64,000 nucleotides of DNA from Lineus longissimus (Eukaryota > Nemertea > Pilidiophora > Heteronemertea > Lineidae). A program made the translations under genes and the position numbers. The notes below the pieces were generated by a model, which was not told the DNA's origin, did no database searches, and worked only from the letters and a program-made list of their open reading frames with translations. Below, piece by piece: positions 36,672 to 44,241 of the stretch; positions within the stretch are counted from its first letter, which is position 1, and the number at the start of each line of letters is the position of its first letter. The DNA is taken from contig NC_088313.1 in assembly GCF_910592395.1 (NCBI RefSeq), positions 21,158,437-21,222,436 of the forward strand, written 5' to 3'.

Positions 36672-39600
36672 ATGTTGACCGCCGCAAGATTGTCGTGTAG
36701 AAATTTAAGAAAAAGCACAGATATTTTTCAAAGCCGATATTTTAGTAATTTGTCTCGGAAGGTGAGTTTTATGTGATTACGCATGTGAAAAATGGCCGTC
36801 GCCGGCTACCATGTGACTTGGTGCAGTACATTTGTACAGGTGTAGGTGACCTTTGCATTTTGGGTGAACTGGTGTGGCTTCTGTTGTTGGGGCCTTTCGA
36901 TATTGTTATTACGTATTTGATTGTCATGCGAGGCCAAAAAACAGCATATTGATTAGATTAGCCTGCCGCCTGTTGGGTGGCTTGGCCTGCTAATTCATTT
37001 TCAACGCCGTGACGATCACGGCCGTTAGACAACAATGTGCCTTAACAATTTATTTGATCACATGACTCCTGTGGAATCTCCGATCTGATTGGTTGATCTG
37101 CAAACATGACGCCTTCGTGGTAATTTGCATGATTTATGAAGTAATTTCCCTTGACCAACTTTGAACGCGTCGATTATGATAATAAAAGGGAGGGACCCAA
37201 ATCGGAAGTGAATAATAATTAGGTCTTGTGCCAGGGATGGTTACTGCGTAATCAATTTTTGGGTACTTCGTCAACTGGCGGAGAAATTTGCTGATGCGCC
37301 AAATCCCGTGCGAGTTTCTTCGATATTTCGCCGGAAAATCAGTTTAAAACAGGTAAGATCGGTTCATATGCCAAGAATTCGTACATGGTTACGAAGAACC
37401 CATATCGAGATACTCTTATGAACCAAGAATAGAAACTAGCAAGGCTTTATAAACGTAAACAGAATGATGAAAAGGGAAAATTATATGGTAATTTCTCATC
37501 TTGGTGGTGTATGCTACAATGTGGAACCAACTACACGGCTCGTCGATGGTGTAGCAGGAGATTTGCTTGACCAACTTTGAAAATCGCGAGCCCGGGTCTC
37601 CTGGTCGTATTCCTTATTATATACCAAGCCACTTTGGTTACTCAACCCGCCGTTGGCGCGGTGGTCGGCAGGCTATTCATAGTAACAAGACCGAGGGATT
37701 TCTCCACAAGTAAAAATTACCTAGCTAACGGCCGTGCGATGTGGTCCGTGGATAATCTGATCATGGCCGGTCGTCTGTACTAGTGTACTGTGGTCATGGA
37801 CAGTGTGGTAGTGGGGCAGAAACCGCAGATATCGTTCTTATAAAGTTGTTAAACTGTTTATGATTGATATATAATAAATTGGAAATGTTTTGTTCTTGCA
37901 GGATTTGGGTTCACTGAGTTCCTACAGTAATACACATAATGTACAAACACAGCGACATGCGTAAGTTTCAAGTCGGCCTGAACGAGCATGGTCCAAGACA
38001 TCTCGATAAATTTTTCTATGAGTTTGGTGACTTGTTCCGGCAGGTGCTGCCAACATTAGCATAGTGGAATTAATCGCCCTCATGTTCATGAGATGCCCAC
38101 AGGCAGGGGCACAATCACCCACAGCTGTTCAGGTCCATGATTATGATTGGCACCGATAATAACTAATAGTAATAGTTTAGTTAATAGACTCGTTAGATGA
38201 ATGTGTTGCTCATTAGGTCATCTTTCACCGACAGTCAAATTTGGGGAACAGAATTTTTAAATGTTTAAAATAATAAAAATGATAGGAAAAGTGCATTGAA
38301 TATCAAGATACTCACATACTGATTATAAAGAATTCCTACCTATTACATTACATTGTTTGAGGCTGTGGCCTATGAAAACAAAATTTAATGCACTACTGAC
38401 AACAGTGAGGCATGTAGGGTCATACATAACAATCATATCGCCACAATAAAGAAGGTCAGAGAGCCAAAGTTGACTTCAGCAGCTGCAGTTGATTGGTATA
38501 TGTAGCTTAATTTGAGTTTATGTTTGTTCGGGTAACATCAGGAATAAACAACTTGTTTCTTTGCAGGTCTGATAAAGTCAAAGGTCATGTCATCGGCATT
38601 GATCTGGGCACCACCAACTCATGTGTTGCCATTATGGAAGGAAAGACGGCAAAGGTATTGGAGAATTCAGAAGGTTCACGGACCACACCCTCAGTGGTAG
38701 CCTTTACAGCTGAGGGGGAACGGTTAACAGGCATGCCAGCCAAGAGACAGTCAGTTACGAATTCAGCAAACACATTTTCAGCAACAAAAAGATTAATAGG
38801 ACGCCGATTCAATGATGCTGAGGTTCAGAAAGATATGTGAGTAAACAGTCGCGTTAAATCAGCAGGTGTATGTTTCTTGACATCAAACTATATCCGTAAG
38901 ATAGTGTGTGCATGTGTCTTGATGCTCAAGTTTCTGGGTATCTCCTGAAATGACTTGTTTTGTATTGTAACAGAAATTGTCTGCTATGCTTGCCGGTGAT
39001 GAAGAATGACCACTTACCTACATTGCTTGAGGCTGTGGCCTGTGAGAACAAACCTCATTCATGCACTACCAACTGAGGCAAGCTGTAAACAGACTTTTCT
39101 ATTCAATACTTTTCTTAAAAGCATGAGCAACATGGAGAAAGTGAGTCTAAATAATACCAATTCTTATTTTACAGGAAAAATGTTTCCTTTAAAATAGTGC
39201 GAGCTTCGAATGGAGATGCGTGGGTTGAAGCCCATGGCAAGATGTATTCACCAAGTCAAGTGGGAGCTTTTGTTCTGGTGAAGATGAAGGAAACGGCTGA
39301 CAGCTATCTCGGTCAGCCGGTCAAAAATGCTGTTGTCACGGTTCCTGCTTACTTCAATGACTCGCAGAGACAGGTAGGCATCTTTTGTCCTGTCAAACGT
39401 TTATGAATGTCTTTACTCCTAGCTGTGCTCAGAAAATCTTTAGGGCGAGTTCATGTCGCAGACAGGTTGTCGTAGAAGCAGTAGTCAGACTAGCTTGTCA
39501 GCCCAAAGTAAGCTCAACTGGATACTCATGCTGATGATGAAGAATGACCACTTACCTACATTGCTTGAGGCTGTGGCCGCTGAGAACAAACTTCATTCAT

Positions 39601-44241: not shown

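What the first reader, a model, noticed from the sequence alone, without database searches (positions are those of the whole stretch)
38320..42983. HSPA9 introns carry a multi-copy SNORD63-like box C/D snoRNA array
Introns 2, 3, 4, 6, 9, 10, 11 and 12 each contain one roughly 80-96-base unit with C box, D box and (except the decayed intron 2 copy) pairing ends. Units in introns 3, 4, 6 and 10 are nearly identical. They share cacttacctacattgcttga and catgcactaccaa before the D box. In vertebrates HSPA9 also hosts SNORD63, so host and guest seem conserved across animals while the copy number has grown here. One copy per intron is the classic pattern for splicing-dependent snoRNA release.
Basis: partly seen in the sequence, partly recalled or inferred. 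Interest (0 to 1): 0.85.

Follow-up and report, generated by a model that had tools for sequence, protein, structure and literature searches.

The report
Dual-guide snoRNAs in ribbon-worm HSPA9 introns
In the bootlace worm, the introns of a mitochondrial chaperone gene carry many copies of a small guide RNA that looks able to direct chemical marking of both ribosome subunits, a job that vertebrates split between two RNAs kept in a different gene; the kind of array is familiar, but this combination and its location look new.

Summary
The gene is mitochondrial HSP70 (HSPA9) of the ribbon worm Lineus longissimus. Introns 3, 4, 6, 9, 10, 11 and 12 each hold a box C/D snoRNA with paired ends, intron 2 a decayed copy. 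No SNORD63 match was listed at E<=10. Six units match SNORD33, and five of these carry two guides: D' against SNORD34's 28S site (human Um2824), D against SNORD33's 18S site (Um1326). The intron 12 copy keeps only the 18S guide. Unit ends pair with their own partner (0 of 2000 permutations) although homology stops near the snoRNA ends. Seven units end 81-98 nt before the 3' splice site (5 of 200,000 random placements as tight). The one other close copy found is in RPL3, which argues against a transposon. Most likely these are splicing-released 2'-O-methylation guides: a familiar kind, with an unusual dual guide and host. Expression and methylation are untested.

The parts
36672..44241 (+). Host gene HSPA9 (mitochondrial HSP70/mortalin), ATG to stop, 15 exons
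   Evidence: joined exons translate exactly to P0002, L. longissimus stress-70 protein
38319..38399 (+). Intron 2: decayed copy (C box degenerate, no significant terminal stem)
   Evidence: 66-72% core identity to introns 3/4/6/10/11 units; scanner p 0.44
38989..39082 (+). Intron 3: dual-guide box C/D snoRNA (D' guide SNORD34-type, D guide SNORD33-type)
   Evidence: RF00133 45.7 bits, above gathering 44; RF00147 28.6 bits, below 38; scanner 0/300
39527..39620 (+). Intron 4: dual-guide box C/D snoRNA
   Evidence: RF00133 38.7 bits, below gathering, E 2.4e-4; scanner 0/300
40275..40368 (+). Intron 6: dual-guide box C/D snoRNA
   Evidence: RF00133 38.9 bits, below gathering, E 2.2e-4; scanner 0/300
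41068..41200 (+). Intron 8: second, weaker H/ACA candidate
   Evidence: ceN125 28.4 bits vs gathering 60; z -2.95, 3/200 shuffles as good
41319..41450 (+). Intron 8: H/ACA snoRNA, SNORA3/SNORA45-like; H box ACAGGA, ACA 3 nt from the end
   Evidence: RF00334 38.9 bits (gathering 51), E 6.2e-5; z -4.13, 0/200 shuffles; two-hairpin scan 0/60 shuffles
41823..41900 (+). Intron 9: box C/D snoRNA, SNORD34-like D' element with shifted D' spacing; no SNORD33 element
   Evidence: RF00147 29.9 bits (gathering 38); scanner 0/300
42136..42229 (+). Intron 10: dual-guide box C/D snoRNA; core identical to intron 4's
   Evidence: RF00133 36.8 bits, below gathering, E 7.1e-4; scanner p 0.01; core 100% to intron 4
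42515..42603 (+). Intron 11: dual-guide box C/D snoRNA, the clearest: above gathering for SNORD33 and SNORD34
   Evidence: RF00133 50.9 bits (44), RF00147 38.6 bits (38)
42891..42984 (+). Intron 12: box C/D snoRNA with the SNORD33 D guide; SNORD34 D' guide lost
   Evidence: RF00133 44.3 bits, above gathering 44; D' guide gave no SNORD34 site
43296..43382 (+). Intron 13: second-family box C/D snoRNA, orphan
   Evidence: scanner 0/300, stem over 10 positions; no snoRNA family match at E<=3; no rRNA helix beyond shuffles
43846..43929 (+). Intron 14: second-family box C/D snoRNA, orphan, 72-74% identical to intron 13's
   Evidence: scanner 0/300, stem over 11 positions; repeat D6 74%; core 72%

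Best explanation
HSPA9 of Lineus longissimus is a snoRNA host gene. Its pre-mRNA is spliced, and each excised intron is trimmed to a box C/D snoRNA protected by its terminal stem. The main guest is a dual-guide snoRNA. Its D' element pairs with 28S rRNA around the SNORD34 site (human Um2824) and its D element with 18S rRNA around the SNORD33 site (human Um1326), so one RNA could direct fibrillarin to one nucleotide in each subunit. Five introns carry the full dual guide, intron 12 only the 18S guide, intron 9 perhaps a failing 28S guide, and intron 2 a dead copy; a further full copy lies in RPL3. Shown by sequence: boxes, stems, guides, position, copies found. Inferred: expression, splicing-dependent processing, methylation, and that near-identical cores with private stems reflect homogenisation or recent copying of the core under selection for paired ends.
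For: Rfam: introns 3, 11 and 12 above the SNORD33 gathering score, intron 11 also above SNORD34's; introns 4, 6, 10 match SNORD33 at E<1e-3 in the gene-only search. Fetched rRNA: the D guide's best site is the 18S segment GG[U]GGUGCAUGG in 3 of 3 scanned contigs holding it (a fourth, L002, was not scanned), the D' guide's best site is AA[U]GUAGGUAAG in 5 of 5 28S contigs; the nucleotide facing the fifth base upstream of the box is a U in both. Families' sites: U33/RF00133-Um1326 and U34/RF00147-Um2824 (table passages of PMC8817022, and PMC3511168). Flanks pair with their own partner: 10 units, 0 of 2000 permutations at each of three flank lengths. D box to 3' splice site 81-98 nt in 7 units, 103 in RPL3; 5 of 200,000 random placements of the seven as tight; a conserved position before the 3' splice site is described for intronic C/D snoRNAs (PMC8162545 passage).
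Against: No RNA or methylation data. Introns 4, 6, 10 (36.8-38.9 bits) and the RPL3 copy (35.6 bits) are below the SNORD33 gathering score, and in the whole-window search introns 4, 6, 10 have E 0.0019-0.0063. In a free search with the whole intron 3 unit, a different site beats the 18S site in contig L041 (26 vs 24), and other helices tie with the 28S site (25) in L042 and L038. The RPL3 stem alone is no better than swapped ones at 10 nt (14 of 18 swaps as good; 4 of 18 at 14 and 18 nt); intron 10's is better than all swaps (0 of 18) only from 14 nt on; intron 6 has 1-2 of 18 swaps as good. Intron 13/14 units lie 215 and 201 nt from the 3' splice site, off the rule. The worm's own rRNA was not seen: two 28S patterns found nothing in the assembly. 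The rRNA contigs were chosen because they hold a target segment, so presence is by construction; only the rank within each contig is a test.
Confidence: 0.86

Rival explanations
1. The units are SNORD63 orthologues that multiplied in their ancestral host gene.
For: Vertebrate HSPA9 hosts U63 (PMC2653536 Table 1).
Against: No SNORD63 among the 26 matches listed at E<=10 over the gene (presence of a SNORD63 model in the library is recalled, not checked); both guides fit SNORD33/SNORD34.
Confidence: 0.02
2. The units are copies of a short mobile element derived from a snoRNA, without guide function in most places.
For: Flanks beyond about 12 nt are at chance, so the unit has moved as a unit; one copy reached RPL3.
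Against: Only six places found in 391 Mb, all in introns and in sense, five of them in one gene (a lower bound); paired ends private to most copies; fixed distance to the 3' splice site.
Confidence: 0.05
3. Real snoRNA genes, but mostly redundant: one or two copies supply function and the rest drift; the loss of guides in introns 9, 12 and 2 is plain decay, not division of labour.
For: Copies in introns 2 and 9 look damaged; snoRNA paralogues within a host are common, 28 of 93 chicken C/D snoRNAs having duplicates (PMC2653536, section 5).
Against: The six units of introns 3, 4, 6, 10, 11, 12 keep boxes, a stem and the D guide letter for letter.
Confidence: 0.3

Closest known systems
SNORD33 / U33 (Rfam RF00133), vertebrate RPL13A intron
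   Same: C, D and D-guide CAUGCACUACCA next to the D box; site 18S Um1326
   Different: Here the D' side carries a SNORD34 guide, the host is HSPA9 (and RPL3), and there are six SNORD33-matching units in one gene. RPL13A as vertebrate host of U32A, U33, U34, U35A: PMC6667457 passage
SNORD34 / U34 (Rfam RF00147), vertebrate RPL13A intron
   Same: D' guide UUACCUACAUUG before UUGA; site 28S Um2824
   Different: Rfam's SNORD34 consensus has no SNORD33 guide before its D box (alignment); here both are in one RNA
U14 in HSPA8 introns 5, 6, 8 (chicken GGgCD9, PMC2653536 Table 1)
   Same: multi-copy C/D snoRNA with two listed target sites, in introns of an HSP70-family gene
   Different: different HSP70, different guides, both listed as 3' elements
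SNORD63 in vertebrate HSPA9
   Same: orthologous host gene, intronic C/D snoRNA
   Different: no SNORD63 match listed here
Chicken GGgCD18 versus human U36A/U36C, and human U32A/B versus chicken single guides (PMC2653536 passage)
   Same: known precedent for guide functions being combined in, or separated from, one snoRNA
   Different: other sites, other hosts, vertebrates

Membership tests
Box C/D snoRNA | C box RUGAUGA and D box CUGA with a terminal stem | tested here: met
   introns 3, 4, 6, 9, 11, 12, 13, 14: 0 of 300 shuffles as good; intron 10 p 0.01; intron 2 fails; own-flank pairing 0 of 2000. In introns 13/14 the C box is off consensus (score 4.5 against 6.5 for a perfect box)
Box C/D snoRNA | antisense element next to D or D' that pairs with rRNA, target facing the fifth base from the box | tested here: met
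   dual-guide units; not met for introns 13/14 and doubtful for intron 9
Box C/D snoRNA | expressed, bound by fibrillarin/NOP58, guides 2'-O-methylation | not testable with these tools
   no RNA data
SNORD33 (RF00133): introns 3, 11, 12 | covariance-model score at or above 44 bits | tested here: met
   45.7, 50.9, 44.3 bits
SNORD33 (RF00133): introns 4, 6, 10 and RPL3 | covariance-model score at or above 44 bits | tested here: not met
   38.7, 38.9, 36.8 and 35.6 bits; grouped with the family only through 93-98% core identity to intron 3
SNORD34 (RF00147) | covariance-model score at or above 38 bits | tested here: inconclusive
   only intron 11 reaches it (38.6); introns 3, 4, 6, 9, 10 score 22.0-29.9
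SNORD63 | match to the SNORD63 model | tested here: not met
   none listed at E<=10; the model's presence in the library is recalled, and a direct search did not complete
SNORA3/SNORA45 (RF00334), intron 8 | score at or above 51 bits | tested here: not met
   38.9 bits; so an H/ACA snoRNA nearest this family, not filed as a member
H/ACA snoRNA, intron 8 (41319-41450) | two hairpins, H box, ACA 3 nt from the 3' end | tested here: met
   0/200 and 0/60 shuffles as stable; ACAGGA and ACA in place
dispersed transposon family | many copies genome-wide outside the host gene | tested here: not met
   6 places at E<=1e-3, 5 in HSPA9 and 1 in RPL3; HSPA9's own copies in introns 2, 9, 12 were missed, so a lower bound

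The most novel reading that the evidence does not exclude
The dual SNORD34(D')-SNORD33(D) RNA is the older animal form, and the separate SNORD33 and SNORD34 that sit together in vertebrate RPL13A arose by duplication and loss of one guide each, the step that the intron 12 copy (18S guide only) shows half-done here. In this worm, supply of a guide for both subunits is tied to a mitochondrial stress chaperone gene rather than only to a ribosomal protein gene, which would couple ribosome marking at these two sites to mitochondrial stress; in mouse the RPL13A-hosted U32A/U33/U34/U35A snoRNAs have been linked to oxidative stress (PMC6667457 passage). Against: Neurospora and yeast have separate guides for the two sites (PMC2780460 passages), so a dual form would be old within animals at most.
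Probability: 0.2. Interest if true: 0.6.

Novelty: new variant of a known kind. Interest (0 to 1): 0.4.

Why it matters
It gives a natural case of a dual-guide snoRNA copied within one gene and splitting: intact dual guides, an 18S-only copy and dead or dying copies side by side in one host. Because cores are near identical while end-stems are mostly private, it can separate homogenisation of the guide body from selection on the processing stem. It also suggests that HSPA9 is used as a snoRNA host by unrelated guests in different animal phyla, in line with the 'constrained drift' view of snoRNA location (PMC3511168 abstract and passages). It corrects an easy mistake: the same host gene does not mean the same snoRNA.

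Tried and rejected
SNORD63: rejected (no match listed). Transposon family: rejected on copy number (lower bound). SNORD35 in intron 5 (39850-39924): 21.6 bits vs 36, E 3 for the window; no C/D candidate by the scanner; left as noise or a relic. H/ACA scan: in introns 1, 5, 7, 13, 14 (and 6, 9, 11, 12) no candidate; introns 2, 3, 4, 10 gave candidates that 16, 2, 2 and 6 of 60 shuffles equalled; not accepted. rRNA targets of the intron 13/14 pair: best scores 24 and 29 against 21-34 in 40 shuffles of the intron 13 unit, so orphan; a 12-bp helix with 3 G-U to one 28S segment recurs in 4 contigs, only a lead. U33/U34 relatives in viral contigs: 7 and 21 loci; by eye none is a C/D unit, 2 of the 28 had a C-box-like word nearby. 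Stress elements in the 1 kb upstream of the ATG: no three-unit heat-shock element, 2 two-unit words and 4 CHOP/AARE-like words, no chance control made; not used. Intron 9 as a working SNORD34: D' spacing shifted, not accepted. Papers: no description of a U33/U34 dual guide or of U33/U34 in HSPA9 was seen in the search listings; open-licence papers only, of which passages of eight were read.

Full report
What the window is. The host protein matches the L. longissimus 'stress-70 protein, mitochondrial-like' entry P0002; the 15 joined exons translate to P0002 letter for letter, with 14 GT-AG introns. The window lies in a 391,118,348-base assembly of 30 contigs at C6:21158437-21222436; the published bootlace-worm genome is 391 Mb (PMC8593623, search listing with start of abstract).

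Check of the observation. The repeats are real and far beyond chance. A scan for C box, D box and end pairing, written after the units had been seen, found one unit in each of introns 3, 4, 6, 9, 10, 11, 12, 13 and 14, with no shuffle as good in 300 except intron 10 (p 0.01); intron 2's copy failed, and introns 5, 7 and 8 gave no candidate. So 9 of 14 introns carry a C/D unit, one more a relic, and intron 8 an H/ACA unit.

What the units are. Against Rfam 15, introns 3, 11 and 12 pass the SNORD33 gathering score; introns 4, 6 and 10 match SNORD33 at E<1e-3 in the gene-only search but below gathering (E 0.0019-0.0063 in the whole-window search); intron 11 also passes SNORD34. No SNORD63 match is listed at E<=10; that the library holds that model is recalled. 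For background, the rest of the 64-kb window gave one match above gathering, a tRNA, and five weak matches at E 0.35-1.7.

Guides. Six rRNA-bearing contigs were scanned. The D guide's top site was the 18S segment GG[U]GGUGCAUGG in 3 of 3 of them with that segment (L042, L001, L041; scores 26, 24, 24; runners-up 15, 16, 23; L002, which also has it, was not scanned). The D' guide's top site was 28S AA[U]GUAGGUAAG in 5 of 5 contigs (score 25; runners-up at most 18). The rule that the target faces the fifth base upstream of the box gives a U in both. In a freer search with the whole intron 3 unit, another site beat the 18S site in L041 (26 vs 24) and other helices tied with the 28S site in L042 and L038. 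That the sites are human Um1326 and Um2824 rests on the families' assigned sites (table passages: PMC8817022; PMC3511168), not on numbering done here. The contigs were selected by exact match to one of the segments, so only ranks are informative. Intron 12 keeps the D guide and has lost the D' guide; intron 9 has a SNORD34-like stretch displaced from its D' box.

Structure as evidence of function. Beyond about 12 nt the flanks of the copies are at chance, yet over ten units (nine in HSPA9 and the RPL3 one; the intron 2 relic was left out) the 5' flank pairs with its own 3' flank: summed duplex energies -97.2, -129.6 and -140.6 kcal/mol for 10, 14 and 18 nt flanks against permuted means of -48.5, -62.8 and -74.8, with 0 of 2000 permutations as low each time. 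Against: the RPL3 stem is not special on its own (14, 4 and 4 of 18 swaps as good), intron 10's only from 14 nt on, and intron 6 has 2, 2 and 1 of 18 swaps as good. Introns 4 and 10 have identical 81-nt cores but different stems, which suggests that the core is being homogenised or was recently copied while each intron's stem is kept by selection; this is inference.

Position. Seven units (introns 3, 4, 6, 9, 10, 11, 12) end 81-98 nt before the 3' splice site, and the RPL3 copy 103 nt; 5 of 200,000 random placements of those seven were as tight. I left out intron 2 (decayed, 167 nt) and introns 13 and 14 (another family, 215 and 201 nt), which do not follow it. A conserved position before the 3' splice site is described for intronic C/D snoRNAs (PMC8162545, passage).

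Copies elsewhere. A whole-genome search with the intron 3 unit gave six places, five in HSPA9 and one at C1:22954844-22954926, 94% identical. That place is in the last intron of RPL3: Pfam PF00297 in three flanking frames, the final exon at 19.9 bits, below its cut-off of 22. Upstream in the same gene region are two matches to snoU83B at 45.2 and 35.3 bits, gathering 35. The RPL3 copy and the intron 4 copy share outer-stem letters on both sides, so they are probably related by a move between genes. The search missed the HSPA9 copies in introns 9, 12 and 2, so equally diverged copies elsewhere would have been missed as well; a profile search of the genome was tried many times and never answered.

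Other guests. Intron 8 holds a stable two-hairpin H/ACA RNA nearest SNORA3/SNORA45 (38.9 bits, below gathering 51; z -4.13, 0 of 200; 0 of 60 in a two-hairpin scan) and a weaker second candidate. Introns 13 and 14 hold a 72-74% identical C/D pair with private paired ends, no snoRNA family match at E<=3 and no rRNA target better than shuffles.

Comparison with the known. Vertebrate HSPA9 hosts U63 (PMC2653536 Table 1), while U33 and U34 sit with U32A and U35A in RPL13A (PMC6667457 passage). Neurospora has separate U33 and U34 equivalents, CD34 and CD22 (PMC2780460 passages). Joining and separating of guides between snoRNAs, and multiplication within a host, are described in chicken (PMC2653536 passages), and movement of snoRNAs between widely expressed hosts is a known theme (PMC3511168, abstract and passages). 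So the kind is known; the dual SNORD34/SNORD33 guide, the host and the number of copies were not seen described in the listings searched.

Verdict. This is a new variant of a known kind, of moderate interest, and the decisive tests are small-RNA sequencing and RiboMethSeq in this worm.

Noticed in passing
L037:3324-3422 and 4186-4284 (+), RPL3 gene region, genome C1: Two snoU83B matches (35.3 and 45.2 bits, gathering 35) in the worm's RPL3 region; vertebrate RPL3 also hosts SNORD83 (recalled), so this host-guest pair may be old.
   Followed up: partly
window 41068-41200 (+): Second possible H/ACA snoRNA in the same intron 8 as the SNORA3-like one; two in one intron would be unusual.
   Followed up: partly
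window 43296-43382 and 43846-43929 (+): Orphan C/D pair sharing ATTTTTCGTCTCTTAA near the 5' side; a recurring rRNA partner is a 28S segment AGGGGCGAAAGA with three G-U pairs, not above shuffles.
   Followed up: partly
window 39850-39924 (+): Weak SNORD35 match in intron 5 (21.6 bits vs 36); of note only because vertebrate U35A sits with U33 and U34 in RPL13A.
   Followed up: partly
window 22221-22295 (+): tRNA-Ala (AGC) gene.
   Followed up: no
window 51843-52712 (+): Open frame with RING and WWE domains (PF00097, PF02825), RNF146-like by recall.
   Followed up: no
window 46075-46611 (+): Open frame with IGFBP and Kazal domains.
   Followed up: no
window 57383-57467 (+): Weak snoZ163 match (25 bits vs 39, E 0.35), outside HSPA9.
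   Followed up: no
L038-L042: 28S-type rRNA (18S too in L041 and L042) in records titled as bacterial MAGs (e.g. QGON01000019.1, endosymbiont of the tubeworm Escarpia laminata): apparently eukaryotic contamination.
   Followed up: no
window 36572-36588 (+): GGTCACGTGACGTCACC, an E-box/CRE-like motif about 85-100 bases upstream of the HSPA9 ATG.
   Followed up: no
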